From positions 186,001-250,000 of the forward strand of contig NZ_CP054051.1 of assembly GCF_013372265.1 (NCBI RefSeq): DNA of 64,000 bases, written 5' to 3'. The notes below the pieces were generated by a model that worked only from the letters and a program-made list of their open reading frames with translations, made no database searches and was not told the origin of the DNA. Every line of letters begins with the position of its first letter. Within the stretch, counting starts at the first letter, position 1. Shown one piece after another: positions 26,095 through 50,198 of the stretch. Origin of the DNA: Aliarcobacter cibarius. GTDB taxonomy: Bacteria; Campylobacterota; Campylobacteria; Campylobacterales; Arcobacteraceae. The position numbers and the translations under genes were made by a program.

Positions 26095-27384
26095 ATGTCA
26101 ACAGAATCAAGTATAAAATGTCCAAATTATGGTGAGTTAATAGATGTTAATGAGATACTTTATCATCAATTAGAAAATGAGTTTAAACAAAAAAATTTAA
26201 ATGAAAAGAAAAAGTTTGAAGAAGAGATAGCTTTAAAACGAATTGAGTATAAACAAGCACTTGATATGCTTAAACAAAAAGAAGAAGATATCAAAGAACA
26301 AAAAGAGAAGTTTGATGAAGAACTAAAAAAAGCTACAAAAGAACTTCTTAAACAAGAAAAACAAAAACTTCAAGAAGAACTAAAAAAAGAGATACTAGAA
26401 GAACAAAGTGAATCTATAGCACTACTTAAAAAAGAGCTAGATGAAAAATCTAATCAAGTAAAAGAATTAAACACTGCAAAAGCTCAAATAGAACAACTTA
26501 AACGTGATAAAGAAGAGATGGAGTCAGCTATCATGGCAAAAGCTCAATTTGCTCTTAATGAACAACTAAAAATAGAAAAAGAGAAAATACAAAAAACTGT
26601 TGATGATCAAAATGAATTAAAATTAAAACAAAAAGAAGAACAATTAGAACAACTTAAAAAACAACTCCAAGATACCCAAAGAAAACTAGAGCAGGGCTCA
26701 CAACAACTTCAAGGAGAAGTACAAGAACTTGCTATTGAAGAGTATCTACAAAATAAATATCCTTTTGATTCTATAGAAGAAATCAAAAAAGGTGTAAGAG
26801 GTGGGGATTGTATTCAAACAGTTCATACTAGAGAAATACAAAACTGTGGAAAAATATATTATGAGAGTAAAAGGACTAAAGATTTTCAACGAACATGGAT
26901 AGAAAAGTTTAAAGCTGATATGAGAGAAAAAGGAGCTGATATAGGTGTACTTGTAACAGAAGTGTTACCAAAAGAACTAGAACGTATGGGACTTATTGAT
27001 GGAGTGTGGATATGTACATATGAAGAGTTTAAAGGTTTATCGTCAGTTCTTAGAGAAAGTATTATTAAAATTAATCAAGCAAAAAAATCAGAAGAAAATA
27101 AAACTGATAAGATGAGTTTATTGTATGGTTATTTAACAAGTACAGAATTTAAAATGCAAATAGAAGCTATAGTAGAAGGTTTTACTCAAATGCAAAGTGA
27201 CCTTGATAGTGAAAAAAGATCCATGCAAAGAATCTGGAAACAAAGAGAAAAACAAATAGAAAAGGTACTTGATAATACTATAGGAATGTATGGTTCTATA
27301 AAAGGCATAGCGGGAAATAGTATTGGTAATGTTAAGGCTTTAGAATTGCCTTATAATTTGTTAGAAGATGAGAATGAATTATGA
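26095..27384 (+). CDS. DUF2130 protein: zinc-finger-like N-terminus, coiled coil, PD-(D/E)XK-like end
   Basis: The 429-aa protein begins with the family's usual CPxCGE-type start, but the second cysteine is tyrosine here (KCPNYGELIDV), so the zinc site is probably lost. Residues about 30-215 are a long charged coiled coil. The C-terminal DUF2130 domain shows ELAIEEYL, RGGDCIQTV and IYYESKRTKDF, with the D and ExK of a PD-(D/E)XK nuclease. Proteins of this family often accompany restriction-modification genes and are presumed DNA-acting; their exact job is not established. It overlaps the next gene by 4 nt. Confidence 0.8.
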   Translation: MSTESSIKCPNYGELIDVNEILYHQLENEFKQKNLNEKKKFEEEIALKRIEYKQALDMLKQKEEDIKEQKEKFDEELKKATKELLKQEKQKLQEELKKEILEEQSESIALLKKELDEKSNQVKELNTAKAQIEQLKRDKEEMESAIMAKAQFALNEQLKIEKEKIQKTVDDQNELKLKQKEEQLEQLKKQLQDTQRKLEQGSQQLQGEVQELAIEEYLQNKYPFDSIEEIKKGVRGGDCIQTVHTREIQNCGKIYYESKRTKDFQRTWIEKFKADMREKGADIGVLVTEVLPKELERMGLIDGVWICTYEEFKGLSSVLRESIIKINQAKKSEENKTDKMSLLYGYLTSTEFKMQIEAIVEGFTQMQSDLDSEKRSMQRIWKQREKQIEKVLDNTIGMYGSIKGIAGNSIGNVKALELPYNLLEDENEL

Positions 27385-29618
27385 TTAATAATATAGAATT
27401 AAAGAATATAGCTACTTATGATGAAGCTGGAACATCTCTAAATAATTTAAAAGAAATTAATTTTATTTATGGGGCAAATGGAAGTGGAAAAACTACGGTT
27501 TCAAACTTAATGAATAATCCACAAGATGTTAAATATCGAGATTGTAATATAATATGGAAGGATGGATACATTGTTGATACTATGGTTTATAATAAATCTT
27601 TTAAAGAAACAAATTTCAACTCTTCAAACCATATCAAAGGTGTTTTTACACTAGGACAAGCAACAGATGATGATATAAAACTTATAGATGAAAAAAAAGA
27701 ACAATTAGAAGCTATTAAAATACAAGGTACTGGATATAAGAAAAAATTAGAAGATTTAAAAGGAACACGTGAAAGTTTAGGGAAGATACAAGATTTAGAA
27801 AATGAATTTAAAGAGTTTTGTTGGACAAAAATTTATAAACCATATGAAGAAACTTTTAAAGAAGCCTTTAAAGGTTTTATGCAAAAACAAACTTTTACAG
27901 ATAAAATACTTAGTGAATTTGCAAATAATCAAGTAACTATATTAAGTATTGATGAATTAAAAAAGAAAGCACAAACAATTTTTGGTGAAACTCCAAAACA
28001 TCTAAATCTTATCTCAACGATTTCATTTGATGAATTGAATAATATTGAGAATGAAGATATTTGGAATAAAAAAATTATTGGTAAGTCAGATGTAGATATA
28101 GCTAGATTAATTCAATATTTAAATATAAATGATTGGGTTAATCAAGGTAAGGGTTATCTTAAAGATGATAACATCTGTCCTTTCTGCCAAAAAGAAACAA
28201 TCACTGATGATTTTAGACAACAACTTGAAAAATATTTTGATACAACATATGTTGATTTAATTAATAAAATTAAGAAATATCAGCAAGATTACGATTTACA
28301 TTCCTCAAATATTATAGAACAATTAAACTATATTGAACATGAACAAAAACAAAATAATAATTCAAAATTAGACTTAGAAAAATTTTCTATTTATATCAAA
28401 ACACTTATAAGTCAAATAAACTCAAATAAAGAAAATTTACAAAGTAAAATAAAAGAACCAAGTAGGTCTTTAGAGCTTACATCAACAAAAGAGCAATTTG
28501 AAAATATTAAAGTTGCTATTGATAGTGCTAATGAAGAAATTAAAAAACATAATAAAATAGTAGCAAATTACCAAACAGAAAAAACTAATTTAATTTGTGC
28601 AATTTGGAAATTTCTAGTGAAATCATTTGAAGATGAAATAAAAGAATATACAAAAAAGCATAAAGGTTTAGAAAAAGGTATAGACAGTTTAACGATACAA
28701 TATAATAAAAAACGACAAGAATATAGGGAACTTAGTCAAGAAATAAAAGATTTAGAAAAAAATGTAACAAGTGTACAGCCGACAATAGATGAAATAAACA
28801 AACTTTTAAATTATTATGGATTTTTAAATTTTGAGATAGTACCTTCTCAAACAGAAATAAATCAATATCAAATTAAAAGAGAAGATGGAACTTTAGCACA
28901 AGAGACATTGAGTGAAGGAGAAATTACATTTATTACATTTTTATATTATTATCAACTTACAAAAGGGGCAGTAAAAGAAGATGAAGTTTCTAATAATAGG
29001 ATTTTAATAATTGATGATCCAATATCAAGTTTAGATAGTAATATTTTATTTGTTGTAAGTACCTTACTAAAAAAAATCATAAATGATGTTAGAAATGGAA
29101 TTAGTAATATTAAACAGGTTATTATATTAACTCATAATGTCTATTTTTATAAAGAAGTGTCATTTATAGATGGTCGGGATACTGGGAGAAGAAATGATAC
29201 ATATTTTTGGATACTAAGAAAAAATAATAAAGTTTCAAAATTTTATCCATATGATACAAATCCAATCAAAACTTCATATGAATTGTTATGGCAAGAACTA
29301 AGAGATAAAGAAAAAAGTTCAAATATAACATTACAAAATACAATGAGAAGAATAATTGAAAATTATTTTAAAATTCTCGGTAATTTCAGCGATGATAAAC
29401 TGATTAAAAATTTTGAAGAATATGAAGAACAGGTTATTTGCCGTTCTTTAATTTCTTGGATTAATGATGGTTCTCATAGTATATCAGACGATTTATTTAT
29501 AGAATCACATGATGATACTATAGATAAATATTTAGAAGTATTTAAAAAAATATTTATTTTTACTGATCATGAAGGACATTATAAAATGATGATGGGTATT
29601 GATGAATTAAATATATAA
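27381..29618 (+). CDS. RloC/PrrC-like ABC-type ATPase, candidate anticodon nuclease
   Basis: The 745-aa protein has Walker A GANGSGKTT (31-39), coiled coils around a CPFC zinc-hook motif (about 266-269), signature TLSEGEITF, Walker B ILIIDDPISSLDSN and a THNVYF switch histidine. The order is that of AAA_13 proteins such as RloC and PrrC. After the ATPase comes MRRIIENYF (R...E) and, about 40 residues later, WINDGSHSI (H), compatible with the R/E/H triad of PrrC-family tRNA-cutting domains. Known PrrC/RloC proteins are silent partners of restriction systems that cut tRNA when DNA damage or anti-restriction is sensed. The type III genes downstream fit that. The nuclease assignment is inference. 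Confidence 0.75.
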   Translation: MINNIELKNIATYDEAGTSLNNLKEINFIYGANGSGKTTVSNLMNNPQDVKYRDCNIIWKDGYIVDTMVYNKSFKETNFNSSNHIKGVFTLGQATDDDIKLIDEKKEQLEAIKIQGTGYKKKLEDLKGTRESLGKIQDLENEFKEFCWTKIYKPYEETFKEAFKGFMQKQTFTDKILSEFANNQVTILSIDELKKKAQTIFGETPKHLNLISTISFDELNNIENEDIWNKKIIGKSDVDIARLIQYLNINDWVNQGKGYLKDDNICPFCQKETITDDFRQQLEKYFDTTYVDLINKIKKYQQDYDLHSSNIIEQLNYIEHEQKQNNNSKLDLEKFSIYIKTLISQINSNKENLQSKIKEPSRSLELTSTKEQFENIKVAIDSANEEIKKHNKIVANYQTEKTNLICAIWKFLVKSFEDEIKEYTKKHKGLEKGIDSLTIQYNKKRQEYRELSQEIKDLEKNVTSVQPTIDEINKLLNYYGFLNFEIVPSQTEINQYQIKREDGTLAQETLSEGEITFITFLYYYQLTKGAVKEDEVSNNRILIIDDPISSLDSNILFVVSTLLKKIINDVRNGISNIKQVIILTHNVYFYKEVSFIDGRDTGRRNDTYFWILRKNNKVSKFYPYDTNPIKTSYELLWQELRDKEKSSNITLQNTMRRIIENYFKILGNFSDDKLIKNFEEYEEQVICRSLISWINDGSHSISDDLFIESHDDTIDKYLEVFKKIFIFTDHEGHYKMMMGIDELNI

Positions 29619-29632
29619 ATAGGAGTGACAAC

Positions 29633-30544
29633 TTGAGTTTACTGTATGATAGAGTTACTAGAGAACATGACAATCGTGAATATAAAAGAAAACCGGCTAA
29701 AGGTGATTTAATATTAGAACTAGAGAAAATAATTAATTTAACACACAAAATAATTGGTTTTGATGGATATATTATTCCTAAAAATGGAAGTAGAGTAACT
29801 TTACTACTATATTGCCGTGAATATAATCAAGAGCTTGTTAAAGATAAAGAGTTGGTTGCTTTAGCACAAATTTTATTTGATGAAATGAATAAAGCAATAG
29901 ATTTTAAAATTGCTATAGAATTCAGTAAAAAACTTAAATGTGATTTAACTTGTGTATTTATTCCATACAATTATCCAAAAGATGATGAGCAAGCTATAGA
30001 GCAGGAAATAATATTATTTCCAAAAATCAATATAGAAAAAAAAGTTAAAAGAACTAATGTTGATGGTTTAAGGTTACTATTGAAAAATTATGAAAAAAGA
30101 TTTACTCGAAAAGCAGTAACATTTATACCTACAAAATTAGAATATTATTTAGCAAATATTCCAAAAGATCAATGGAAAATAGCTTTTCCAGGGGATGCCG
30201 ATGGTATTTTTATGGATGAAAACTATAATGTTCAAGCTATTTTAGAATATAAATCTGATACACAAGGAAGAATTTTAGAGGAAGAATCTATTCAAAAATA
30301 TAATGCAGACTCAACTAGATTTAGTGTTCTTGATGATTTTTGTAAACTTTTAAATGTGCCTTTAGTTGTTGTTTTTTGGTCTGATACTCATTCTAATACA
30401 AAAATAACTATCAGAAATTCAGTTAAAGGAATAGAAAATAGCTTACCTATTATTAAATCTAATGATTATAATTCTTGTGCAAAAAAGATTTATGATGTTT
30501 TACTTAATTTAAGCATACACATGAATAAATTGGATTTATTATAA
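29633..30544 (+). CDS. Predicted PD-(D/E)XK nuclease-like protein in the restriction island
   Basis: The 303-aa protein uses a TTG start behind AGGAG, 15 bases after the previous stop; no nearby ATG fits. Residues about 186-210 carry GDADGIFMD and AILEYKSDT, the D...E-x-K core of a PD-(D/E)XK enzyme, followed by a strand/helix pair (PLVVVFWSDT). No close family recognised. Its position between the ATPase and mod suggests a partner nuclease or a substrate-recognition subunit for the ATPase; that is inference. Confidence 0.65.
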   Translation: MSLLYDRVTREHDNREYKRKPAKGDLILELEKIINLTHKIIGFDGYIIPKNGSRVTLLLYCREYNQELVKDKELVALAQILFDEMNKAIDFKIAIEFSKKLKCDLTCVFIPYNYPKDDEQAIEQEIILFPKINIEKKVKRTNVDGLRLLLKNYEKRFTRKAVTFIPTKLEYYLANIPKDQWKIAFPGDADGIFMDENYNVQAILEYKSDTQGRILEEESIQKYNADSTRFSVLDDFCKLLNVPLVVVFWSDTHSNTKITIRNSVKGIENSLPIIKSNDYNSCAKKIYDVLLNLSIHMNKLDLL

Positions 30545-30567
30545 TCCCAATCTAACAAACATTTAAA

Positions 30568-30573
30568 TATAAT
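30568..30573 (+). promoter_or_regulatory. Candidate -10 box of mod
   Basis: TATAAT in TAAATATAATATC, 29 bases before the ATG of mod, with AGAGGA as ribosome binding site. It suggests that mod can be expressed separately from the upstream ATPase genes, which would let methylation precede restriction. Confidence 0.45.
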
Positions 30574-30602
30574 ATCTACTTTATAAAAGAGGATTAAAGT
30601 AA

Positions 30603-32426
30603 ATGAGTTTAGAGAAAAACGTTATAGAAGAACAAAGTATAAATGATGTTAATTATGAATTATTAAAAAAACAATTTCCTAACGCTGTAAGCATAGATGA
30701 AAATGGTAAGTATGTAATAGACCCTCAACAGTTACAATTGAGTTTAGACCCATCACTTGCCCAAATAAAAGAAGATGGTTATGGGCTTAATTGGGTTGGG
30801 AAAAAAGAGGCTTATCATAATGCATTTACAAAAAACTATAAAGTTCTAAAACCACTTAAAGAGATTTCTAAAAATTGGGATGAAACAGAAAATATCCTTA
30901 TAAAAGGGGATAATCTTGATGCTCTAAAAATACTTAGACAAAACTATTATGAATCTATCAAAATGATATATATCGACCCACCTTATAATACTAAAAATGA
31001 TGGCTTTGTTTACAATGATGATTTCACAACTTCAACTGAACAAACACTTGAAGAGCTTGGATATGATAAAGAATATATAGACTATATTGAAAATATTCAA
31101 GGAGCTAAAACACATAGTGGTTGGCTTAGTTTTATGTATCCTAGACTTTTATTGGCAAAAGATTTTCTCAAAGATGATGGAGTTATTTTTATATCGATTG
31201 ATGATAATGAAAATGCACAGTTAAAACTTCTATGTGATGAAATTTATGGTGATGATAATTTTGTAGGAGAATATATTTGGAATAAAAAGAATGTTGTACA
31301 AAATGATGCTACACATATGTCAATTAATCATGAGTATATTTTAGTATATGCAAAGAATTTTAATATATTTAGATTTAATTTATTAGAAAGAACAGAAGAA
31401 CAACTAAAAAGGTATCAAAATCCTGATAATGATCCTAGAGGATTGTGGACAAGTGTGGCACTACAGGCTAAAAGTGGCTCAAATACATATAGTATTGAAT
31501 TTGATAATGGTGTTCAATGGGAGCCTGTAAAAGGTACATACCCTAGATTATCTAAAGATAGTTTAATAAAAGCATACAATGATAACAGATTATGGTTTGG
31601 TAAAGATGGGAAAAATGTTCCTAGGTTAAAAAAGTTTTTATCTGAAGTTAAGGAAGGTGTTTTATCTTCATCTCTTTTATTAGCTGATGATGTTGGTTCA
31701 ACACAACTTGCGAAAGAAAATTTAAAAAAGTTAATGAATAATAATTTATTTGATACACCTAAACCAATAGGTTTAATTTCAAAATTTTTGCAATTAGCTA
31801 CAAAAAATGACCTTATTCTAGACTTTTTCGCAGGAAGTGGAACAACTGCACATGCAGTAATGGATTTAAATGCTCAAGATAATGGAAATCGTAAATATAT
31901 TTGTGTTCAATGGGCAGAAGGGACACCTGAAAATAGTGAAGCTAAAAAAGCTGGGTATGAAACAATATTTGATATTACAAAAGCAAGAATAGATAAAGCA
32001 GGAGAACAGTTAGCAAAAGGTGATATAGGTTTTAGAACTTTTGAAATAGTGGAAGACCAAAAACAAAAAATTTACCAAAAATCACTAGAAGAGGTAAATC
32101 AAGAAGATTTATTAGTGATGATGGAAAAACCTGATATTTCATCAAATGAAGAGATACTTTATAATCTATTTGTAGCAGAAGCTTTACCACTTAGTACAAA
32201 ACATCAAGAGCTTATTAAAGATAAACTTTATTTAGCGTCAAATGTAGCTTTTATTCTTGGTGATATAACTTCTGATGAATTGGTTGAAGCTTTAAAAGAT
32301 AAAAAAGAGTGTGAATATATCACTGTGTATTCTCCAAATATTAGCAATGATAAGTTTACTCTTGAAATAGAAAGTAATATATCAAAACTTGGTATCAAGA
32401 GTGATAAACTAAGATTTAGAGGATAG
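30603..32426 (+). CDS. mod: Type III restriction-modification DNA methyltransferase (Mod)
   Basis: The 607-aa protein has motif IV DPPYNT (125-130), followed much later by motif I DFFAGSGTT (about 406-414), the beta-class amino-methyltransferase order used by type III Mod subunits. The target-recognition region lies between. Mod binds the asymmetric recognition site, methylates one strand at N6-adenine and supplies specificity to Res. I saw no long simple repeat of the kind that phase-varies mod in other genera. RhuM follows two bases later. Confidence 0.92.
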   Translation: MSLEKNVIEEQSINDVNYELLKKQFPNAVSIDENGKYVIDPQQLQLSLDPSLAQIKEDGYGLNWVGKKEAYHNAFTKNYKVLKPLKEISKNWDETENILIKGDNLDALKILRQNYYESIKMIYIDPPYNTKNDGFVYNDDFTTSTEQTLEELGYDKEYIDYIENIQGAKTHSGWLSFMYPRLLLAKDFLKDDGVIFISIDDNENAQLKLLCDEIYGDDNFVGEYIWNKKNVVQNDATHMSINHEYILVYAKNFNIFRFNLLERTEEQLKRYQNPDNDPRGLWTSVALQAKSGSNTYSIEFDNGVQWEPVKGTYPRLSKDSLIKAYNDNRLWFGKDGKNVPRLKKFLSEVKEGVLSSSLLLADDVGSTQLAKENLKKLMNNNLFDTPKPIGLISKFLQLATKNDLILDFFAGSGTTAHAVMDLNAQDNGNRKYICVQWAEGTPENSEAKKAGYETIFDITKARIDKAGEQLAKGDIGFRTFEIVEDQKQKIYQKSLEEVNQEDLLVMMEKPDISSNEEILYNLFVAEALPLSTKHQELIKDKLYLASNVAFILGDITSDELVEALKDKKECEYITVYSPNISNDKFTLEIESNISKLGIKSDKLRFRG

Positions 32427-32428
32427 AT

Positions 32429-33463
32429 ATGGAAGAAAATCTAAATATTATTATCTATTCAAGTGAAGATGGGAAAACAAAACTTGATGTAAAACTTGAA
32501 AATGAGACTTTGTGGTTAAACCAAAAGCAACTTTGTGAACTCTTTGGAAAATCTAAATCAACTATAAGTGAACATATTAAAACTATTTTTGAAGATGAAG
32601 AACTAGATGAAAAAGTGGTTGTTCGGAATTACCGAACAACCACTCAGCATGGTGCAATAGAGGGAAAAACTCAATCAACTGATGTGAAATATTATAATCT
32701 AGATATGATAATTGCTCTTGGATTTAAAGTACGAAGTAGAACAGGTGTACAATTTAGAAAATGGGCAAATAATATACTAAAAGAGTATGTTGTAAAAGGT
32801 TTTGCAATGGATGATGAAAGGCTTAAAAATCCTCCTGTAGCAAATTCTTTGGTTCCTGATTATTTTGAAGAGATGATAGAGCGAATTAGAGATATAAGGG
32901 CTAGTGAGAGAAGAGTATACTTGCGAGTGAAAGAGATATTTGCACTTGCTAGTGATTATGATCCTTCATGGAGTGAAACAACACGATTTTTTCAGCATAT
33001 ACAAAATAAACTTCATTTTGCTATTACAAAATTAACAGCAGCTGAAATTATTTCTCAAAGAGCAAATGCTAGTTTACCAAATATGGGTATTACAACTCTT
33101 TCTACAGATAGTATAAAAAGTACAGATATAACAGTGGCTAAAAATTATCTAAGTGAAAAAGAGATTGAAGAACTTAATCGTATAGTTGTAATGTGGTTGG
33201 ATTATGCAGAAGATCAAGCTAAAAGAAAACAACAAGTGTTTTTAAATGATTGGGAAAATAAATTAGATGCATTTTTAGAGTTTAATGAAAGAGATGTTTT
33301 ACAAAATTTTGGACAAGTTTCAAAAAAAGAAGCAGATAAAAAAGCTAAAGATGAATATAAAATATTTTCTGCACAAAGAAGAGCTCAAAAAGAAGAACAA
33401 GGGTTTATAGAAAATATAAAAGCCTTAGAGAATATTGCAAAAATGGTAAAAGAGAAAAAATAA
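32429..33463 (+). CDS. rhuM: RhuM-family protein inside the type III operon
   Basis: The 344-aa protein shows the family features: N-terminal DNA-binding-like LWLNQKQLCELFGKSKSTISEHI, then KYYNLDMIIALGFKVRSRTGVQFRKWA (Bro-N/KilA-N-like core), a middle YLRVKEIFALASDYDPS block and a coiled C-terminus. RhuM was named for a Salmonella pathogenicity island gene; its function is unknown, but it recurs inside type I and III restriction operons. The ATG lies two bases after mod, and the stop overlaps the Res start (TAATG). A 12-bp-arm hairpin is embedded in frame in its coding sequence. Confidence 0.9.
   Translation: MEENLNIIIYSSEDGKTKLDVKLENETLWLNQKQLCELFGKSKSTISEHIKTIFEDEELDEKVVVRNYRTTTQHGAIEGKTQSTDVKYYNLDMIIALGFKVRSRTGVQFRKWANNILKEYVVKGFAMDDERLKNPPVANSLVPDYFEEMIERIRDIRASERRVYLRVKEIFALASDYDPSWSETTRFFQHIQNKLHFAITKLTAAEIISQRANASLPNMGITTLSTDSIKSTDITVAKNYLSEKEIEELNRIVVMWLDYAEDQAKRKQQVFLNDWENKLDAFLEFNERDVLQNFGQVSKKEADKKAKDEYKIFSAQRRAQKEEQGFIENIKALENIAKMVKEKK
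32615..32643. repeat. Perfect inverted repeat inside rhuM
   Basis: GTGGTTGTTCGG / CCGAACAACCAC around AATTA, coding for VVRNYRTT. The 15-nt core TTCGGAATTACCGAA recurs, inverted, in the intergenic hairpin at 11831-11859. Confidence 0.65.
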
Positions 33464-36408
33464 TGCTAAAAATAAAATTTGACAGACTTGATTATCAAGA
33501 ACTTGCAGTAAATAGTATCAGTGATGTATTCAAAAATATAGCATTTAAACCAAATGATAATAAGAAAAGTAATCCATCTTTTGATTTACAAGCTTCAAAA
33601 AGTATATTAGTAAATAATATTACAAAAGTTAGAGAAATAAATAAAGTAGATATTGGCGATATCTCTATCAAAGATGAGCTTGTTATAGATACTTTAATGG
33701 AAACAGGTACTGGAAAAACTTTTACATTTTTAGAGTCAATATATAGGCTAAATAGAGATTATGGACTTTGTAAGTTTATAATCTTAGTGCCTTCAAATCC
33801 AATTCGACAAGGTACTATTAAAAATATCAATATTACAAAAGAATTTTTTACAAAAGAGTACGGTAAACAAATATCAGTTTATAACTATAGTGAAAAAACT
33901 GTTTTAAATTATATAAATGCAAGTAGTCAAAATATCTCTGTTTTGGTATCGACTTATCAATCATTTAACAAAGCAACAAATAGTATTAATAAAAATAAAA
34001 TAGAACAAACTCTTATTGGTCGTTCTCGAAGTTATATGCAAGCAATAGGACATTTAAGACCTGTAATAATTATAGATGAACCACATAGATTTGAGGGAAA
34101 ACAAACAGCAAAATATCTAAAAGAGTTTAATGCACTTTTTACATTAAGGTTTGGTGCAACTTTTAAAGGTGATGAGTATAAAAATCTCATATATACACTT
34201 GATAGTGTAGATGCCTTTAGTAGGGGACTTGTAAAGGCTATAACAGTCGATACTGTGGGAAATGAAAATGTAGATAATCATACGATTAGGCTTAAAGAAG
34301 TAAAAGGGGCTAACCAAAAAGATTATGTAGCAAAAATAGAGTATAAAGATATTAATTCTAAAACAAAACCTACTGAATTAAAGCATGGTGAGAACTTAGG
34401 AGAAAAAGTAGGGATTGAATATCTAACTAGTTATGTAGTTGAAAAAATTACTAAAAGTGAAGTGATATTCACAAATGGTATTTCAATACTTCTTGGAGAG
34501 AGTGAGAGCTATGGTGTGCTTCTTGATGAAGTGCAAAAAGCTATTGTTGATACAGCTATAAAAAATCATTTTGAAAGAGAAGAAGAATTATTTAAACTGA
34601 ATATCAAATCACTTTGTCTGTTTTTTATAGATAGAGTTGATAAATATTTGACTGAAGATGGGATTAATGGAAAGTTAGCACTTCTTTTTGAAACTTTATA
34701 TTTAAAAAATTTAGAACAAGTTTTAAAAAAAGATAATTTAGATGAAGATTATAAAAAATATCTTTTGAAAACAAAAGATTCTGTAAAAGAAGTACACAGT
34801 GGATATTTTGCAAAATCTAAAAAAGAGGGAGATGAAGCAGAAGCTATTGAGCTAATTTTAAATAAAAAAGAAGAATTATTAAGTTTTGATAGTGATCTTA
34901 GATTTATATTTTCTCAATGGGCTTTACAAGAAGGATGGGATAATCCAAATGTAATGACACTTTGTAAATTAGCTCCTAGTAATTCTAAAATATCTAAATT
35001 GCAACAAATAGGTAGAGGATTAAGACTTGCAGTAAATCAAGATGGAAAAAGAATTACAAAAGATGATAGTAATTTTGATTTTGTAAATGAACTTTTTGTT
35101 GTTATTCCATCAACTGAAGAAAATTTTGTAACTTCAATACAAAAAGAGATAAGTGAAAACAGTATTAAGCAAGTATCGAAACTATTTAACGAAGATATTA
35201 TGGTAGAAAATCATATTGCTACAACTTCAAGAACAGCAGTAAAATTACTTGATAAACTTGATGAAATAGGCTTTATTTCAATAGATGAGAATGATATGAG
35301 TGAGATAATCATATCAAAAGAAGATTATTCAACAAGATCAAAAGAATTAGAATCTTTAGATATAAAAGGTTGTGATAATAGTAAATTAAAAGAGTATTTT
35401 GATAGTTTCTTTAAAACAACAAACAGAATAAAAGCAAAAGATAGAAGTGATAAAAAAGAAAAAGGAAAAATAAAAATTCATAAAGAAAATTTCCAAAAGT
35501 TTAAAACTTTATGGAATAACTTAAATTATGATGCAGTTGTAAAATATGACATAAATAGTGATATTTTAATTGAAACAGCAATAAAAAAAATAAATGAAAA
35601 TTTTTTGATAAGTGGACAAGATATTATTGTTAAAAGAGATAAAAATATTGAAGATAAAGATAAACATGATAGTGAAAAAGAAACTATCAGTGTTGAAACA
35701 CATTCTATTTTTACACTATATGAGTTTGTAAAAGCAGTTTCTAATAGTACTAAATTAAGTATGCAAACAGTTGCAAAAATATTACATGGTATAAAAAAAG
35801 AAAAATTTGATTTAATATATCAAAATGAAAATTTAGCACTTAAAAAAATAGAAGAACAATTAGTAAGTTCAATTTATGAAGTTATTATAAATAAAATATC
35901 TTATGATTTAAAAGAAATAAAAACTTGTAATACATCTTTAACAGATAAGAATGGAAATTTAAAAGAGTTTATACCTGAGGGAAGTTTAGGTACAGAAACA
36001 TATAAAATTAAATCTAAGAATATAAGAGATTTGTCAATCTATGATGAAGACTTTATGGAGGTTGATAGTGGAGCAGAAAAAATTGCTATTGATGAATCTA
36101 GCGACAAAAGAATTACAGTTTTTGGAAAATTACCAAAAGTAAATATTCCAACAGCACATGGAAGGCATTATAATCCTGATTTTGGTTATGTAATAGAAAT
36201 AGGTAATGGAAAAGAATTATATTTTGTAGTAGAAACTAAAGGATATGATAAATTTGATGATATAAGCACAAAAGAAAAACTTCAAATCAAAAGTGCTGAA
36301 GCATTTTTCAAAAAATTGCGTGAAATGGGTGTAAATGTAGAGTATCAAACTAAGTTAAATAGTCCTGATTTGTCTCAACTTATAAGTGAAATATTAAAAG
36401 ATAAATAG
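33463..36408 (+). CDS. res: Type III restriction enzyme, helicase-nuclease subunit (Res)
   Basis: The 981-aa protein has Walker A METGTGKT (79-86), a DEPH Walker B (IIIDEPHRF, about 205), motif V/VI QWALQEGWDNPNV and QQIGRGLRL, and a C-terminal PD-(D/E)XK nuclease with NPDFGYVIEI and FVVETKG (about 904-926). Res uses ATP to translocate or switch along DNA from a Mod-bound site and cuts after meeting a second complex. Full length with all motifs, so the system looks functional. It is the last gene of the operon. Confidence 0.92.
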   Translation: MLKIKFDRLDYQELAVNSISDVFKNIAFKPNDNKKSNPSFDLQASKSILVNNITKVREINKVDIGDISIKDELVIDTLMETGTGKTFTFLESIYRLNRDYGLCKFIILVPSNPIRQGTIKNINITKEFFTKEYGKQISVYNYSEKTVLNYINASSQNISVLVSTYQSFNKATNSINKNKIEQTLIGRSRSYMQAIGHLRPVIIIDEPHRFEGKQTAKYLKEFNALFTLRFGATFKGDEYKNLIYTLDSVDAFSRGLVKAITVDTVGNENVDNHTIRLKEVKGANQKDYVAKIEYKDINSKTKPTELKHGENLGEKVGIEYLTSYVVEKITKSEVIFTNGISILLGESESYGVLLDEVQKAIVDTAIKNHFEREEELFKLNIKSLCLFFIDRVDKYLTEDGINGKLALLFETLYLKNLEQVLKKDNLDEDYKKYLLKTKDSVKEVHSGYFAKSKKEGDEAEAIELILNKKEELLSFDSDLRFIFSQWALQEGWDNPNVMTLCKLAPSNSKISKLQQIGRGLRLAVNQDGKRITKDDSNFDFVNELFVVIPSTEENFVTSIQKEISENSIKQVSKLFNEDIMVENHIATTSRTAVKLLDKLDEIGFISIDENDMSEIIISKEDYSTRSKELESLDIKGCDNSKLKEYFDSFFKTTNRIKAKDRSDKKEKGKIKIHKENFQKFKTLWNNLNYDAVVKYDINSDILIETAIKKINENFLISGQDIIVKRDKNIEDKDKHDSEKETISVETHSIFTLYEFVKAVSNSTKLSMQTVAKILHGIKKEKFDLIYQNENLALKKIEEQLVSSIYEVIINKISYDLKEIKTCNTSLTDKNGNLKEFIPEGSLGTETYKIKSKNIRDLSIYDEDFMEVDSGAEKIAIDESSDKRITVFGKLPKVNIPTAHGRHYNPDFGYVIEIGNGKELYFVVETKGYDKFDDISTKEKLQIKSAEAFFKKLREMGVNVEYQTKLNSPDLSQLISEILKDK

Positions 36409-36655: not shown

Positions 36656-37075
36656 CTTATTAAAATTGATAAAATTAAATTATTTTTCTCAGTAATTGTT
36701 AGTAATTTTTCCAAAAATATTAAAATAATAGATAAAGGAGAAGAAATTGTATCTGTTAAAAATAGAACAAATATAGAAGAACAAGTAAAAATAATGATAC
36801 AAATAGCACTTGCAAAAGATTGGAAACTTGAAAATATAGAACCATATGGAGATGAAGATTTTATAAATGAAGCAAATAGACAAATAGCAGATTTAATTTT
36901 GAAGAAAAATCAAATTAAAAATAGTAATGTAGAAATCAAAAGAGTAAAATCACCACTTCAACAGCAAAAAGTAAATCTACAAAATGAAGATTTAAACCCT
37001 AAAATAATTTGTGAATTAATCATTAATTTTGTTTCAACAATTATCTATTTACATAAACTAATATTTATAAAATGA
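36656..37075 (+). pseudogene. Fragment of a conjugative relaxase (LPD7-like region)
   Basis: The frame is open from just after a TAA at 36653; the first ATG is at 36794. In-frame residues include DKGEEIVSVKNRTNIEEQ, then MIQIALAKDWKLENI, YGDEDFINEANRQIADL. The 'invariant DKG, then a helix ending in A.A..W, then G.E.F..EA' pattern is that of the LPD7-type domain found after the catalytic domain of large MobP/TraI-like relaxases. The catalytic domain itself is missing and the tail is short and hydrophobic, so it is a leftover. Its presence indicates a second, decayed mobilisation unit. Confidence 0.55.
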
Positions 37076-37142
37076 GTATTAGTTTATGATTATATTAAAT
37101 TATAAACATAATATGTCTATAATATTAAATAAAATTCCATTA

Positions 37143-37253
37143 GTAGCCTTACTACAATATTGTAGTAGATCTTTTTTATAAAAAGGTATTTCACATTAAA
37201 ATTACTAATAATTCTACTTAAGTGTAGGGTTTCAAAGCAAAGTTTTGGGCTAC
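37143..37253 (+). ncRNA. Candidate structured leader RNA of the reverse transcriptase
   Basis: GTAGCC (37143-37148) can pair with GGCTAC (37248-37253), enclosing a perfect TACTACAATATTGTAGTA hairpin (37150-37167), CTTTTT/AAAAAG with a 3-nt loop, a CTAC/GTAG hairpin and a weak CAAA/TTTG hairpin. This would be a closed multi-branch fold about 26 bases before the RT ATG. Retrons and DRT systems carry an ncRNA in just this position. By-eye folding only. Confidence 0.35.
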
Positions 37254-37279
37254 ATAAATTTAGTTTACAAGGTTTAAAA

Positions 37280-38488
37280 ATGGAAAATAAGTTATATAAA
37301 ATATATTCAAATCTAAAATCAAATCAAAGTACAGGAATTGACGGTATTTCAAAACAAAAACTTGATGAGATTATAGATGATGAAATATCAATAATTAAAC
37401 GAAAAATAGAAAATAATAGTTATGATTTTTCATTTTATAAACAAAAACTTCTAATAAAATCTATAAATAAAACTAGAGAAATATCAATACCTACACTAAG
37501 AGATAAAATAGTTTTAAAGTATTTATTTAATGAGATATCAAATAGTTTTAAAGAAAATTTAACTTCAAAATCACATGCAAATATTATAGTAAATGAAGTA
37601 ATAAAACAAAGACAAAATTTTAATGCTTTTATAAAAGTAGATATTGTAAATTTTTTCCCATCTATAAATCATGAAATATTATTAGAAAAATTAAAAACTA
37701 AAATATTTGATGAGAATATCTTAAATTTAATTACTAAAGCTATAAAACAAACAACTGTAGATGAAAAAACTTCTAATAAAGAAAGAATAAAATATAACAA
37801 CAATGTTGGTGTTCCACAAGGATTGTCTATTTCAGGACTTCTTGCAGAAATTTATGTAAATGATTTAGAAGTAAAATATAATAACAATAATAAATTGAAG
37901 TTTTTTAGATATGTTGATGATATATTGATTTTATGTAATAAAGATCACTTAGAAAATATAATGATTAATTTAGAATCAGATTTTAGAGATTTAAAGCTAA
38001 CAATTCATAAATTTGAAGAAAATTCAAATAAATCTACATATGGTAATAAAGAAGATTTATATGAATTTTTAGGCTATAAATTTGAAAATGAGCTAATTAG
38101 TGTTAGAAATAGCTCAGTTCAAAAAATGTACACAAATATAAGTAAATTATTTACATTGTATAAAAATGAAAGAATATATTCAAAGGATTATTTTATTACG
38201 AGATTGAATTTAAAAATAACAGGCTGTATAATTGAAAATAAGAAGTATGGTTGGATTAGTTTTTTTTCAAATATTAATGATCATAAGCTTTTATTTCAAT
38301 TAGATCAATTTGTAAGAGAGAATTGTGAAAAGAATAATATAGAGTATGACAACATAAAGAAATTTTCTAGAGCAATTTATGAGATAAAAAATACAAATTC
38401 AAATTACATAATTTATGATTTTAAAAAAAATAAAATTTCTGAAAAAGATCTAATAATTGATTTCTATGATGATATAGAGTTTTATTAA
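37280..38488 (+). CDS. Stand-alone reverse transcriptase (retron/DRT-like, class unresolved)
   Basis: The 402-aa protein has STGIDGISKQKL near the start, then KVDIVNFFPSINH (first catalytic aspartate, about 120), GVPQGLSISGLLAEIYVNDLE, FFRYVDDILIL (Y211-VDD) and a FLGYKF block, i.e. RT motifs 1-5. There is no maturase or HNH domain, so it is not an ordinary group II intron protein. The C-terminal part (RLNLKITGCI...GWISFFSNINDHKLL) contains an ITG that may echo the retron VTG, but the retron NAxxH motif is not obvious. Lone RTs in defence islands with a structured upstream RNA include DRT2 and DRT9; I cannot place this one without a phylogeny. Ribosome binding site AAGG. Confidence 0.85.
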   Translation: MENKLYKIYSNLKSNQSTGIDGISKQKLDEIIDDEISIIKRKIENNSYDFSFYKQKLLIKSINKTREISIPTLRDKIVLKYLFNEISNSFKENLTSKSHANIIVNEVIKQRQNFNAFIKVDIVNFFPSINHEILLEKLKTKIFDENILNLITKAIKQTTVDEKTSNKERIKYNNNVGVPQGLSISGLLAEIYVNDLEVKYNNNNKLKFFRYVDDILILCNKDHLENIMINLESDFRDLKLTIHKFEENSNKSTYGNKEDLYEFLGYKFENELISVRNSSVQKMYTNISKLFTLYKNERIYSKDYFITRLNLKITGCIIENKKYGWISFFSNINDHKLLFQLDQFVRENCEKNNIEYDNIKKFSRAIYEIKNTNSNYIIYDFKKNKISEKDLIIDFYDDIEFY

Positions 38489-39008: not shown

Positions 39009-39187
39009 AATTTTTTTACAAATAGTTAAGATAATAAATAAAAATAAAAGATAATTCTATTAAATAGTTCAAAATAAATCAAAACTGTAAATCATAATTT
39101 AAACAAGGTATATTTTTTATTTTTAGACAGAATATGTCTTAAGTAGTTTATATAATCCAACTAAGATTACATCAAAGGTTATATAAA

Positions 39188-39967
39188 ATGAAAAAATTAA
39201 TAGCAACACATAATAAAATGTTTCATGCAGATGAAATAACAGCCATTGCACTTTTAGAAGTTTTCACTGATTTTGAAATAGAAGTGGAAAGAGTAGAGCA
39301 TGATTGTAAAGATTTTTCTAAATATGATTTTGTTATAGATATTGGTAAAAAATTTGATGGAATAAAATATTTTGATCATCATCAATATAAAGGTGGAAAG
39401 AGTTCAGCTGGATTAATTTGGGATTATATAGGATTGAATGAAGAATATCCAAAATTATCTAAACTTATTGATTTAGTAGATAGAAATGATGTTGGTATTG
39501 AAAAAGCAAAACCATTTGAATATTCATCTTTAATTAAATGCTACAATACAAGAAATCCAAGCTCAAAAGAACAAGATGAACAATTTTATCAAGCAGTAAA
39601 TTTTTCAAAAAATATAATATTATCAATGAAAGATATGGAAGAGGGTATGATAAAAGCAAAAGAGATTATAAATAATTCTTTTAATTTTAATCGTAATCCA
39701 GAAATTATTGAATTAAGTGAATTTACACCTTATTGGACAAGTTATATAAATGGAATAACTATGCCATTTGTTAAAGCTGTTGTATGGGAAGATGAAGATG
39801 ATAGAACTTGGAAAGTAAAAGTACCTTCAAAAACTGTTGGTTCTTTTGAATTAAATGGAAATCCATTAAAACAAGATAATAATATGGAATTTGTTCATTC
39901 AAGTGGACATTTTGCAATTGCAAAAGATGAATTAACTATGATTAAATATCTATCAAAAAATATTTAA
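39188..39967 (+). CDS. MYG1-family (DHH-like) predicted metal-dependent phosphohydrolase
   Basis: This 259-aa protein begins THNKMFHADEITAIALL, then DFVIDIGKKFDG, FDHHQYKGGKSSAGLIW and LIDLVDRNDVGI: the HxxHxDE, D, DHH and D motifs of the MYG1/DHH superfamily. MYG1 proteins act as 3'-5' RNA exonucleases in eukaryotes; the bacterial role is open. It is slightly shorter than typical MYG1 (about 300 aa), with a degenerate C-terminal half (ELNGNP..., HSSGHFAIAK). A TATAAT lies at 39151. Not an obvious mobile gene, but all neighbours are. Confidence 0.8.
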   Translation: MKKLIATHNKMFHADEITAIALLEVFTDFEIEVERVEHDCKDFSKYDFVIDIGKKFDGIKYFDHHQYKGGKSSAGLIWDYIGLNEEYPKLSKLIDLVDRNDVGIEKAKPFEYSSLIKCYNTRNPSSKEQDEQFYQAVNFSKNIILSMKDMEEGMIKAKEIINNSFNFNRNPEIIELSEFTPYWTSYINGITMPFVKAVVWEDEDDRTWKVKVPSKTVGSFELNGNPLKQDNNMEFVHSSGHFAIAKDELTMIKYLSKNI

Positions 39968-45758: not shown

Positions 45759-48086
45759 TTAAATATCATCCAAATAATCAAACTCTTCTTCTTCAAGAGT
45801 TTGGTTATTTTCCACTAAAGTTACATTATTTAATTCATAAGCAACCCATTTTTTTCCATTAAATAAAATTTTAGCATTTGCTTTTGCAGAGCAAACCTTA
45901 TCAATATTATTTAAAATTAATAAATTTTCTGGAATGTAATAGTCCTTTATAAATCCAAAAAAACCATTAGAATTATGTTTTACTTGTAATTCTCCCGAAA
46001 CATCTTTTAACAAAGAATTATCGATTTTATCTGTAAGCTCTACTTTTAAGATATTAATTTTTGTTTTACTGCTATTTTTATCATTAGATGAGTAATACTT
46101 TATTTTTATGAAATCACCAATATTAGGCCTCAAGTCAGTTTGATCAAAGTGAATAACTCCATCTTGCCTAGAATTTATAACATAATGAAATAATTTCTTT
46201 TGAGTATTTATATGGTCAACTATGGCTATTTCTTCTTGTGCACTATTAATTATTTCATCTATTTTATGAAGTGACTTTTCTATTTTTAAAACTAAATATC
46301 TTTTATTTGCATTGTCATAATGCAATTTAACTTCGAAAACATCATTCTTTATTGCATTAACAAGAGATTTAGATTTTTTTCTATTAGTAACAAATTCAAC
46401 ATTTTTAAAATCTGTAAAAATTAATCTCTCTTTTCCTTCCTTATTTTTAAAAGTTTCATATAAAACTACATAAGTCGAAGGAATATTAGATAAGATATAT
46501 TCTTCTGCTTCTGATTTAGAAGATTCATAAAAAGTTTTATTGTCTAATGAAGAAGATTCGATATTTGAAACTTTAGAAAATAGTATATGAAATTTTTCTG
46601 TAATTTTCCATCCTTTTTCTTCTCTATGATTTCTGTATTTAGTTAATTCAACAAGTCCTTCATTTAATTGTCCACTATCTAATAATAATTCTGCTAAATC
46701 GAGTCTAATCTCTCCCAAAAAATCCTCATTGGGTTGAATAGTAATAGCTTTGCATAACATAGAAATAGATAGGTATTTATTTCTATTTTTGATAATATTT
46801 GAAAATTCATGCCATGCGTATGCTTGATCACTCAATTCTAAAATAATACTTTTGTAAATTTGAATAGCTTCATCTATTTTATTTGTTTTATTAAGTAATA
46901 TTGCATATTCCCTTAGTAACCAAATGTCATTTTCTAGTTTTTTTAGAGCATATTGATATAAATTAATTATCCAACCAATATCTTCTTGATCTTTATTTGA
47001 TGATCTGACAATATCAAATAGTTTTTTTAGAGATTTTAATGCAAGTGACTTGTTGGTATATTCTCCATTAATTTCCTCCCTCCAGTCTTCATTCGTAAAG
47101 TTTTGAATATTCCAATTTTTAATAAACTCATAAAATCTCCATTGGTTATCCTCTATCATATATCTTTCTGCAAGCTTTAAAATTTCAGAGTGCCAGTGAG
47201 ATGGTCCATAATTAGAATATGTATTTACATAATAATTTAAAACACTCCACATAAAATTTATCTGATTATCTTTGTGAGCTTGAAATATCTTCCAAAAAAA
47301 TGTTTCTCTAATACTCTCTATAATAAGATTTTCATTTTTAATTTCATGGATTAAATAGTTAATATCATACGGTGTCTGATTGTTAATAATTACTTTGAGA
47401 AGCCTACTTAGTAAAGATGGAAACTCTTTACCTTCATTATATTGCTTTCTAATATCGTCTTTTTGTAAATATTTAGGATTCCAAATTTGAAAAAATTTGA
47501 AAATATCAAAATCTTTATGTGTAGATGCATAATGAACTGCAATTTGCAATATCATTGAATGTAATAAAGAGGGTCTTTCATTTTTTAGATTTAAATATTC
47601 AAATAATATTTTTTTAAGAGCATCAATAGTTAGAGTATTTTCAAATGCTTTAACATACCTGTACAAAATCCATCCGTATGACTCATGATGATTAATACTT
47701 AAATTACCTGATTGCTTAATATTTTGAAATATATTTAATGCTTCTTGGTGTTTTCCATTTTTACTTAGTTGTTCAGCTTGTTGTATATGTGAATAGGCAG
47801 AGTCTAGTTTTGGCTTTAATAGTTCAATTTGCTTAGTCAAAATATCATCATGCGTTACAAAGTTTATAGAATTCAATTGATTAAAAAAGTTTTTTGCTAA
47901 CTCCAAGTTTTTAGTTGATTCAATTTTAATAATATCAATTAGTACCCAAGCATAAGCTTTTTGAGTCCATTCATCATTTGGATCATTCTTAAAGAGATGC
48001 GAAGCTATTTTATATGCATCGCTTAACTGTTTATTTTTTCTAAGTTCAAAAACTTTTTTAGTTGTATATTCTTCAATTTCAGACAT
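45759..48086 (-). CDS. TPR-type repeat protein, second gene of an unassigned helicase pair
   Basis: I start at the ATG at 48086 (MSEIEEYTT), 9 bases after the helicase stop; a TTG three codons earlier is possible. The 775-aa protein is mostly helical repeats: LFKNDPNDEWTQKAYAWVLI, EQLSKNGKHQEALNIF, IDEAIQIYKSIILELSDQAYAWHEFS and ELLLDSGQLNEGL all have TPR spacing. The last 200 residues are strand-rich, with NGFFGFIKDYYIP resembling a cold-shock/S1-type nucleic-acid-binding barrel. A TPR array plus an RNA/DNA-binding end suggests a sensor or scaffold for the helicase. No known system recognised. Confidence 0.7.
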   Translation of the reverse strand: MSEIEEYTTKKVFELRKNKQLSDAYKIASHLFKNDPNDEWTQKAYAWVLIDIIKIESTKNLELAKNFFNQLNSINFVTHDDILTKQIELLKPKLDSAYSHIQQAEQLSKNGKHQEALNIFQNIKQSGNLSINHHESYGWILYRYVKAFENTLTIDALKKILFEYLNLKNERPSLLHSMILQIAVHYASTHKDFDIFKFFQIWNPKYLQKDDIRKQYNEGKEFPSLLSRLLKVIINNQTPYDINYLIHEIKNENLIIESIRETFFWKIFQAHKDNQINFMWSVLNYYVNTYSNYGPSHWHSEILKLAERYMIEDNQWRFYEFIKNWNIQNFTNEDWREEINGEYTNKSLALKSLKKLFDIVRSSNKDQEDIGWIINLYQYALKKLENDIWLLREYAILLNKTNKIDEAIQIYKSIILELSDQAYAWHEFSNIIKNRNKYLSISMLCKAITIQPNEDFLGEIRLDLAELLLDSGQLNEGLVELTKYRNHREEKGWKITEKFHILFSKVSNIESSSLDNKTFYESSKSEAEEYILSNIPSTYVVLYETFKNKEGKERLIFTDFKNVEFVTNRKKSKSLVNAIKNDVFEVKLHYDNANKRYLVLKIEKSLHKIDEIINSAQEEIAIVDHINTQKKLFHYVINSRQDGVIHFDQTDLRPNIGDFIKIKYYSSNDKNSSKTKINILKVELTDKIDNSLLKDVSGELQVKHNSNGFFGFIKDYYIPENLLILNNIDKVCSAKANAKILFNGKKWVAYELNNVTLVENNQTLEEEEFDYLDDI

Positions 48087-48095
48087 TTTAACCAA

Positions 48096-50198
48096 CTAAT
48101 TTAAAAGAGATAATATCAATTTACTTAATTCAATTGATGAATTACTTTGTGGTTGTGAACGAGTAAATTGTTTTTTACCGTTGTAGTAAAAATCTATAAT
48201 GGAAACTTCATTATTTTGTTTAAATGTATATCTTTCTAAATAATTAAAATGCTCTATTTGTATGATTTCAATATCATAATTGCTGATTGTATTTAAAATA
48301 GCATTATAATATTCTTCTAAAAAATTTTCAGCAAATACAAAATGTTTTTTATCCTCTGCCATATTAGCCAAAAATAGTGTTTTATTTTCTAGAGACTTTA
48401 GTAAAATCTCAGCAAGTTTTGCAAGAGTATTTGTTTCAATTGCAGATACTTTAGTAATTTTATTTTTACTATTATAGATAAATTTAATTCTACATATTTC
48501 ATTGTTGTATTCAAGTGTGTACTGTTCACAATATTGATTATGAATTGTATCTGTAATTTTTATATCACTTTGATCTAATAATTTTTTGGTTTCAGAATAA
48601 ATTGCATCTTCTATAAATTCTGGTAAAGTAATTTGTGCTGAGAATTCATTATTAGTGCTATCATTTATTTCTTTTGTTTCAATAGGTTGTAGTACAGGAG
48701 AATTATATTGTTGCATTTTAGTAAATGGTGAAAAATGAGGTTCATCAAGTGTAAACAGTTTTTCAGAACTTCTTGTTATTGCTGTATATATCCATCTAAA
48801 ATAGCTTTGACTTAATACACTTTGATGAGTTTTGCAATTTAAAAATACATTTTTCCATTCACTACCTTGGGCTTTATGACAAGTAATTGCATATCCAAAC
48901 TTTATTTTTAAAGCATTAAAATAAGGATCTTTTTTTAATGCATCTTTCCATTCTTTAGTATTTGATTTTAAATGTGGATTTCTCATCACAAAATCAACAT
49001 ACAATGCTTTATGTTGGTTTGAACTAAGGTTTGATTTGTCTGAGTAAAGAAGGTTTTCTATAATTTTAGATTTTATAGAGTGTGGTACTCCATTGATATC
49101 ATGAAATAGAATTGTAACATCCCTAAAATATAAGGTTTCATTAATTATTCCATTTTTTGTAACAATATGTTTTACTTCAGGTTTATAAGATACTTCTTGA
49201 ATAATTCCAAAGTCACCGTTAGAAATAAAGATTTCATAGTTTGCATTATTTGAAACAACCAATACTTTATCATTTACTGTAATATTATTTGTATTGCCTG
49301 GAAAAAAATATTCTCTGATTTTATCGTTATACTCTTTAACTGATGCATTTGAAAAAGCAATAACAATTGTATCTTGATCAATTCTATTATTGCATTGCAT
49401 TAAATAAGTATTTAAAAAATCCTCGTGAGCTATATGAGCTACATCATTATAATTTGTATCGATATCTAATTGATTGAATGTTTGATTGTCAAGTGATTTT
49501 CTGATGGGCACAGTATTTTTTAAAATACCACTATCAGATTTTTGTCTAACTACTTCTGTAAGTTCATAATCATTAACTAATAGATTAAAAGTTTGTTTTA
49601 AATACTGAGCATCCAATGCAGGAGAAAAATTCATTCCAATAGGAGGTAGCTGAGCATTATCTCCTATAAATATGATTTTTTTATTATGGTCATTACAATC
49701 TATATTGATATATTTTAATAAATCTTGTAATAAAAACCCACTACCAAATCTAAAAAATTCAGGTTCACTATAAATATTAGATATCATTGATGCTTCATCT
49801 ATAATGTAAATAGTATTATTGGAATCTTCATTCACTCTAAGATCGAAATAGAATTTATAAGTTTTATCATTTTCATTTTCTTTATATTCCTTTATGTCAT
49901 TTGTGGAATAGATAGTTTTATGAATAGTGTATGCTTCATTTTGTGTTTTATTTGCAATAACTTTTGCCGCTTTTCCAGTAGGAGCTGCAAGAATAAACGT
50001 TCTTCGTATTTCTTTTAAATATTCAGTTAAGCCTTTTGTAATAAATGTCTTACCAGTACCTGCATACCCTTTTAAAAGAAAAATATTTTGTGAAGAATTA
50101 GGAGCATCTATAAAAGCTTCTAATTTACTTACAAGTTCACTTTGAGAATTAGTCAAATTATATTTTTGAAAAAATTGTGACAGTTTTATTGCTGACAT
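48096..50198 (-). CDS. RecD/UvrD-like superfamily 1 helicase with duplicated C-terminal domain
   Basis: The 700-aa protein has Walker A KGYAGTGKTF (44-51), AAPTGKAAKVI (Ia), IYIIDEASMI (II), IFIGDNAQLPPIG (III), LTEVVRQ (IV), AITCHKAQGSEWKNVF (V) and YTAITRSSEKLF (VI), all typical of RecD/TraA-type 5'-3' helicases. After residue about 525 come two related modules of about 75 aa (about 528-605, 626-700) with the pattern DI.I...H..Y.E.YT...N.E...I.F.YN.K, an internal duplication I do not recognise. It is followed at once by the TPR gene; together they look like a two-gene operon, plausibly for defence. Confidence 0.85.
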   Translation of the reverse strand: MSAIKLSQFFQKYNLTNSQSELVSKLEAFIDAPNSSQNIFLLKGYAGTGKTFITKGLTEYLKEIRRTFILAAPTGKAAKVIANKTQNEAYTIHKTIYSTNDIKEYKENENDKTYKFYFDLRVNEDSNNTIYIIDEASMISNIYSEPEFFRFGSGFLLQDLLKYINIDCNDHNKKIIFIGDNAQLPPIGMNFSPALDAQYLKQTFNLLVNDYELTEVVRQKSDSGILKNTVPIRKSLDNQTFNQLDIDTNYNDVAHIAHEDFLNTYLMQCNNRIDQDTIVIAFSNASVKEYNDKIREYFFPGNTNNITVNDKVLVVSNNANYEIFISNGDFGIIQEVSYKPEVKHIVTKNGIINETLYFRDVTILFHDINGVPHSIKSKIIENLLYSDKSNLSSNQHKALYVDFVMRNPHLKSNTKEWKDALKKDPYFNALKIKFGYAITCHKAQGSEWKNVFLNCKTHQSVLSQSYFRWIYTAITRSSEKLFTLDEPHFSPFTKMQQYNSPVLQPIETKEINDSTNNEFSAQITLPEFIEDAIYSETKKLLDQSDIKITDTIHNQYCEQYTLEYNNEICRIKFIYNSKNKITKVSAIETNTLAKLAEILLKSLENKTLFLANMAEDKKHFVFAENFLEEYYNAILNTISNYDIEIIQIEHFNYLERYTFKQNNEVSIIDFYYNGKKQFTRSQPQSNSSIELSKLILSLLN

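What the first reader, a model, noticed from the sequence alone, without database searches (positions are those of the whole stretch)
37076..38488. Lone reverse transcriptase behind a foldable leader: candidate DRT/retron-like defence system
Seen: a 402-aa RT with a complete YVDD active site, no maturase or endonuclease domain, and a 200-base leader in which GTAGCC/GGCTAC can close a multi-branch fold containing a perfect 18-base TACTACAATATTGTAGTA palindrome. Known: retrons and DRT systems (e.g. DRT2, DRT9) pair an RT with an upstream ncRNA and sit in defence islands. Inference: this RT uses the leader RNA as template or primer. The ITG in its C-terminal part may echo the retron VTG, but other retron hallmarks are not obvious, so it may belong to an unclassified group.
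Basis: partly seen in the sequence, partly recalled or inferred. Interest (0 to 1): 0.8.

Follow-up and report, generated by a model that had tools for sequence, protein, structure and literature searches.

The report
DRT10-like telomerase-type system lacking SLATT
This bacterial gene is a reverse transcriptase of the family that copies a short RNA template over and over, as telomerase does, to fight viruses; it sits behind its own folded template RNA but has lost the membrane protein that tested relatives need, and four related genomes share that loss, so it is a natural two-part version worth testing.

Summary
At 37280-38488 there is an intact 402-aa RT with YVDD, directly behind a stable multi-branch leader. 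It is not a retron, a group II intron or an unclassified group: it belongs to RT family UG17, the RT of the published DRT10 system (ncRNA + SLATT membrane protein + RT; protein-primed, telomerase-like tandem-repeat cDNA). The leader matches the DRT10 ncRNA plan: closing stem, SL1, SL2, linker, boundary hairpin (SL5), then a template loop with a CAAAG|CAAAG repeat. The RT ends in tyrosine, where the 27 canonical relatives compared have their last, priming residue (Ser or Tyr).

What is new is an absence. Nearly every canonical relative with readable flanks carries SLATT just upstream of the RT. Here, and in four related genomes of one order (three genera in all), the ncRNA abuts the RT, no DRT10-type SLATT gene was found in the genome, and the RT's C-terminal segment is reduced. 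These RTs group together inside UG17. The leaders fold alike while their template loops differ in sequence.

Verdict: a two-component, SLATT-free variant of a known kind. Predicted product: (CTTTG)n ssDNA primed on Tyr402. Product, priming and defence are untested.

The parts
37103..37119 (+). Palindromic operator/-35 region TAAACATAATATGTCTA in front of the ncRNA
   Evidence: Aligned in front of the ncRNA in all 5 SLATT-less loci; related sites cluster at 133-236 kb of this genome, 13 of 23 against about 1 expected
37130..37135 (+). Probable -10 box (TAAAAT; TATAAT or TATACT in the relatives), about 8-10 nt before the ncRNA closing stem
   Evidence: Alignment A10; inferred, the consensus scan alone is not above chance
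37143..37253 (+). DRT10-like ncRNA: closing stem GTAGCC (37143-37148) / GGCTAC (37248-37253)
   Evidence: z -4.7 to -4.8; same architecture in 5 SLATT-less leaders and in canonical L003
37149..37168 (+).
37169..37187 (+). SL2, 3' arm AAGGT
   Evidence: the SL2 position covaries in canonical ncRNAs
37188..37209 (+). Single-stranded linker ending in ACTAAT (CTAAT is near-invariant in the canonical ncRNAs of alignment A2; not kept in L121)
37210..37231 (+). SL5, putative template-boundary hairpin (core CTACTTAAGTGTAG 37214-37227)
   Evidence: the SL5 position covaries in canonical ncRNAs
37228..37246 (+). Putative template loop GGTTTCAAAGCAAAGTTTT; A = CAAAG 37233-37237, A' = CAAAG 37238-37242
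   Evidence: Homologous position to the Eco3DRT10 template; repeat alone P = 0.06 (mononucleotide) / 0.22 (dinucleotide shuffle)
37280..38488 (+). UG17 (DRT10-family) reverse transcriptase, 402 aa
   Evidence: PADLOC RT_UG17 389 bits, E 5.8e-117, next best UG family 96 bits; phylogeny
37910..37921 (+). YVDD catalytic motif (residues 211-214)
38483..38485 (+). Terminal Tyr402, putative protein primer
   Evidence: Last residue is Ser in 24 and Tyr in 3 of 27 canonical UG17 RTs, Tyr in 4 of 4 intact SLATT-less RTs

Best explanation
A two-component, SLATT-free variant of DRT10. The leader 37143-37253 is an ncRNA that binds the UG17 RT. The RT starts DNA synthesis on its own C-terminal tyrosine (Tyr402), copies the template loop up to hairpin SL5, lets go, re-anneals at the repeated CAAAG and copies again, giving long single-stranded (CTTTG)n attached to the RT. 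With no SLATT pore protein, defence would come from the cDNA itself (as for DRT9) or from an unlinked partner. Shown here: RT family, ncRNA architecture, absence of SLATT, terminal Tyr. Inferred: RNA binding, priming, repeat product, antiviral role, effector.
For: RT: RT_UG17 389 bits against 96 for the next UG family; nested in UG17 at 100/99 support. ncRNA: z -4.7; all six leaders tested, including SLATT-bearing L003, fold alike on their own, against 13 of 2400 shuffles. Conservation with L121 stops at the template loop, as DRT10 templates vary (PMC12632851). Last residue is Ser or Tyr in 27 of 27 canonical RTs compared and Tyr in all 4 intact SLATT-less RTs; the published primer S456 is the last residue of the 456-aa Eco3 RT. 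SLATT absent: no confident hit in G000, G447, G759, G665 or G751 while G341 gives E 1.9e-60. Repeated in five genomes of three genera. Defence-island setting: type III R-M and further PADLOC candidates nearby.
Against: No expression, cDNA or phage data. Published DRT10 needs SLATT, so the loss could mean lost or changed function. The A-B-A' repeat is not individually significant, and in L143 it is at most 2-3 nt. A covariance model of canonical ncRNAs with only 9 base pairs (R1) did not hit the SLATT-less leaders. The tail carrying Tyr402 is disordered in the model.
Confidence: 0.7

Rival explanations
1. Degrading DRT10: the locus lost SLATT and part of the RT tail and is on its way to becoming a pseudogene.
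For: SLATT and a C-terminal segment are gone; the G665 copy is broken in mid-RT.
Against: The window RT and three others, 42-49% identical to it, stay full-length and open with [YF]VDD and the same terminal D-[IV]-[ED]-F-Y motif; their leaders keep fold and promoter. That points to selection after the loss, not decay.
Confidence: 0.1
2. Canonical DRT10 logic with the effector supplied in trans or replaced, for example by another island gene (the MYG1-like gene downstream, or a WYL regulator).
For: A MYG1-like gene follows the RT at the window, G751 and G759 and lies about 7 kb away in G665; WYL genes lie in the palindrome-marked islands of G447, G759 and G665.
Against: No neighbour is conserved next to all five RTs; G447 has no MYG1-like gene in the 20 kb read. 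Several neighbours have their own palindrome promoters.
Confidence: 0.3
3. A retron or group II intron RT with an ordinary untranslated leader.
For: TIGR04416 group II RT/maturase matches weakly (139.7 bits, cut-off 300); the fold resembles group II RTs.
Against: RT_UG17 is far better; no maturase, endonuclease or Rfam intron/retron match; group II RTs form a separate outgroup at 100/99.
Confidence: 0.02

Closest known systems
DRT10 (UG17 RT + SLATT + ncRNA), Tang et al. 2025, PMC12632851
   Same: RT family; ncRNA plan with a template loop behind SL5; variable template with a repeat; last-residue Ser/Tyr; defence-island setting.
   Different: No SLATT gene; RT has a reduced C-terminal segment before the terminal Tyr; ncRNA abuts the RT and in the window has no SL3/SL4 between SL2 and SL5.
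DRT9
   Same: Class 2 UG RT with ncRNA template; protein-primed; reported ncRNA structure resembles that of DRT10; cDNA itself is the toxic product (from the literature).
   Different: Different RT family (66 bits against 389); DRT9 template is poly-U, here CAAAGCAAAG.
Telomerase (TERT + TR)
   Same: By analogy, short alignment/template repeat and a template-boundary hairpin.
   Different: Bacterial, compact, predicted protein-primed; only distant sequence similarity (PDB TERT E about 3e-9 with the family profile).

Membership tests
UG17 RT family | Best match to the UG17 profile by a wide margin | tested here: met
   389.1 bits vs 96.3 for the next UG family
UG17 RT family | Falls inside the UG17 clade, outside group II | tested here: met
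   UG17 100/99; with L003 and other SLATT-less RTs 98/99
DRT10 system (published, tripartite) | SLATT gene between ncRNA and RT, required for defence | tested here: not met
   ncRNA abuts the RT; HMM of 13 SLATTs finds none in G000; positive control G341 1.9e-60
DRT10 system (published, tripartite) | Upstream structured ncRNA with SL5 followed by a template loop | tested here: met
   Same fold in six leaders incl. canonical L003; but canonical CM R1 did not hit it
DRT10 system (published, tripartite) | A-B-A' repeat in the template loop | tested here: inconclusive
   CAAAG|CAAAG at the right place, P 0.06-0.22 alone; five loci together P 0.03-0.09
DRT10 system (published, tripartite) | C-terminal Ser/Tyr primer | tested here: met
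   Terminal Tyr402; residue present, priming not tested
DRT10 system (published, tripartite) | Makes tandem-repeat cDNA and protects from phage | not testable with these tools
   Needs cDNA sequencing and plaque assays
Retron | Retron-type RT with msr/msd RNA | tested here: not met
   UG17 is the best family and no retron family is among the 25 best PADLOC matches; no Rfam hit in the leader
Group II intron | Maturase domain and intron RNA | tested here: not met
   No Pfam maturase domain, TIGR04416 below cut-off, no Rfam intron
DRT9 | DRT9-type RT and poly-U template | tested here: not met
   66 bits only; no poly-U template loop

The most novel reading that the evidence does not exclude
A telomerase-like RT-ncRNA pair that protects cells without any membrane effector: its tandem-repeat ssDNA acts directly, or signals to the palindrome-bound regulator of the surrounding island (WYL-type regulators are candidates).
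Probability: 0.3. Interest if true: 0.82.

Novelty: new variant of a known kind. Interest (0 to 1): 0.6.

Why it matters
How DRT10's repeat DNA stops phage is unknown, and the published model routes it through SLATT. A lineage that dropped SLATT but kept RT, ncRNA and primer residue is a natural experiment: if it still defends, the repeat DNA has a SLATT-independent role; if it does not, it shows what else the RT is kept for. It may also be one of the smallest telomerase-like repeat-synthesis units (about 110-nt RNA, 402-aa protein).

Tried and rejected
Retron and group II intron readings. CTAAT as a universal ncRNA signature: present in the window linker but not in L121. A loose structural descriptor scan: useless, 127 hits in AT-rich DNA, replaced by a shuffle test on MFE folds. 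CM R1 from canonical ncRNAs with only two hairpins: finds canonical loci but not the SLATT-less ones. MAFFT alignment of all short leaders does not align the helices, so no pair-count covariation is claimed for them. Two-copy repeat as proof of A-B-A': too weak statistically. blastn of a canonical locus against E. coli genomes: no match. A partner gene next to all five RTs: none found. The second RT hit of this genome (145.6 kb) branches with group II RTs. Weak SLATT-model hit in G751 (E 0.006, 66 residues): falls in the ORF starting MQKILLIEDR, judged chance. Left out of the canonical set: L083 (no SLATT-sized ORF seen upstream, last residue Lys; not examined further), frame-broken L068, L084 and L085, and L001, a distant hit not shown to be UG17.

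Full report
Observation. The ORF 37280-38488 (+) encodes a 402-aa RT with R-YVDD and no other domain. GTAGCC/GGCTAC close a fold at 37143-37253 with z about -4.8.

Family. The PADLOC UG17 profile scores 389 bits; the next UG family 96. UG17 was shown to be the RT of DRT10, a system of ncRNA, SLATT protein and RT in which the RT primes on its C-terminal serine or tyrosine and makes tandem repeats from an A-B-A' template behind hairpin SL5, like telomerase (PMC12632851). In an IQ-TREE phylogeny the window RT lies within UG17 (100/99) and apart from group II RTs.

What is missing. In nearly every canonical relative with readable flanks, from plasmids (L033-L038), viral contigs (L041-L086) and G341 (L003), a SLATT gene or an ORF of SLATT size and sequence precedes the RT directly; L083 is a possible exception that I did not examine. 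The window has none: the ncRNA ends 26 nt before the RT start codon. Searches found four more such loci: L121 in G447 (another genus of the same family, 49% identity), L142 in G759, L143 in G751 and L144 in G665 (one genus of another family of the same order; the last is interrupted). An HMM of 13 DRT10 SLATTs finds none in G000, G447, G759 or G665, only a weak 66-residue match (E 0.006) in G751, and E 1.9e-60 in the positive control G341, which belongs to the same genus as G759, G751 and G665. The four intact SLATT-less RTs form one group (89/68, 92% of bootstrap trees), sister to L003 (98/99). One loss of SLATT is the simplest reading; its node has only moderate support. A survey reported SLATT_5 next to about 82% of UG17 RTs (PMC8934634), so the remainder may include such systems; I found no description of one in the papers searched.

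The RT tail. Window and L121 RTs lack the roughly 30-residue segment that precedes the terminal motif in canonical RTs; L142 and L143 differ in the same region and have insertions elsewhere. All four keep the very end, D-[IV]-[ED]-F-Y, where L003 has D-I-Q-M-Y. Across 27 canonical RTs the last residue is Ser (24) or Tyr (3). Published primers are S456 in a 456-aa RT and Y444 in Eco1. Tyr402 is therefore the likely primer. AlphaFold2 gives a good RT model (pLDDT 84.7) but a disordered tail, so its place near the active site is not shown. Foldseek finds group II RTs first, then DRT9.

The ncRNA. Six leaders (window, L121, L142, L143, L144 and canonical L003) were folded separately. Each gives closing stem, SL1, SL2, linker, SL5 and a template loop; z -3.5 to -5.5; 13 of 2400 shuffles show that architecture. 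Window and L121 leaders align with E 2.5e-12, and the similarity stops at the start of the template loop. Template loops differ: CAAAG|CAAAG (window), GATA|GATA (L121), ACAAAC|ACAAAC (L142), AAAA-TAG-AAAA (L144), at most AG-AAC-AG in L143. By position (five nt behind the SL5 core, as in Eco3-like ATGTT|CAAT) the window template is CAAAG, product (CTTTG)n. The repeats alone are weak evidence: summed over five loci P = 0.03 (mononucleotide) or 0.09 (dinucleotide shuffle). In the MFE fold of the window a weak hairpin covers part of the template loop. A covariance model of canonical ncRNAs did not detect the SLATT-less leaders, so ncRNA homology rests on position, architecture and RT kinship, not on a profile score.

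Promoter and setting. In all five loci the ncRNA is preceded by a TAGACAWWATATGTCTA-like palindrome and a TATAAT-like box (TAAAAT in the window) about 10 nt before the closing stem. Such sites cluster in the surrounding island: 13 of 23 in 133-236 kb of this genome (expected 1), and mostly on the one contig that holds the RT in G447 and G751. The window locus lies between a type III R-M system (30603-36408, with a PDC-S06 ATPase at 27381-29618) and PDC-M16A/B genes (45759-50198). G447 has Zorya genes just upstream. This supports a defence role by association only.

Mechanism and uncertainty. Shown: RT family, architecture, SLATT loss, terminal Tyr. Inferred from DRT10: protein priming, template re-alignment, (CTTTG)n. 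Open: effector. I prefer a cDNA that acts without SLATT, directly or through an unlinked partner. The system is best filed as a SLATT-free variant with a UG17 RT that works like DRT10, not as a canonical DRT10, because the SLATT criterion was tested and not met.

Noticed in passing
window 37103-37119, 39124-39140, 50235-50251; G000 133-236 kb; L124, L145, L146: A palindrome TAGACAWWATATGTCTA, oriented with transcription, precedes many genes of one island in several genomes (13 of 23 sites of G000 in 4% of the genome, p about 2e-12). It looks like the shared operator of a defence/mobile island; WYL-family regulators lie in several of these islands.
   Followed up: partly
window 39188-39967; L146 11492-12274; L145 12507-13289; L147 1747-2574: A MYG1-like (UPF0160) gene lies downstream of, or within about 7 kb of, the SLATT-less RT in four of five islands.
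   Followed up: partly
L144 2052-2552: The G665 copy of the RT has a deletion and frame break in the palm region, so it is probably inactive, while its leader keeps the fold.
   Followed up: partly
window 27381-36408: Type III restriction-modification genes with a PDC-S06 ATPase in front and a PDC-S05 (RhuM-like) gene between mod and res.
   Followed up: no
window 45759-50198: Adjacent PDC-M16A/PDC-M16B candidates; the 700-aa helicase carries a TBP-TOTE domain.
   Followed up: no
L145 11233-12448: DarT1 toxin and NADAR antitoxin genes directly behind the SLATT-less RT of G759.
   Followed up: no
L142, L143 upstream of the ncRNA; L121 2930-3051: An ssb gene lies directly before the ncRNA in two loci; in L121 a stretch reading like an SSB acidic tail lies nearby in the opposite orientation.
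   Followed up: partly
window 36749-37075: A 108-aa open stretch just upstream of the leader looks like a gene remnant; no family match.
   Followed up: no
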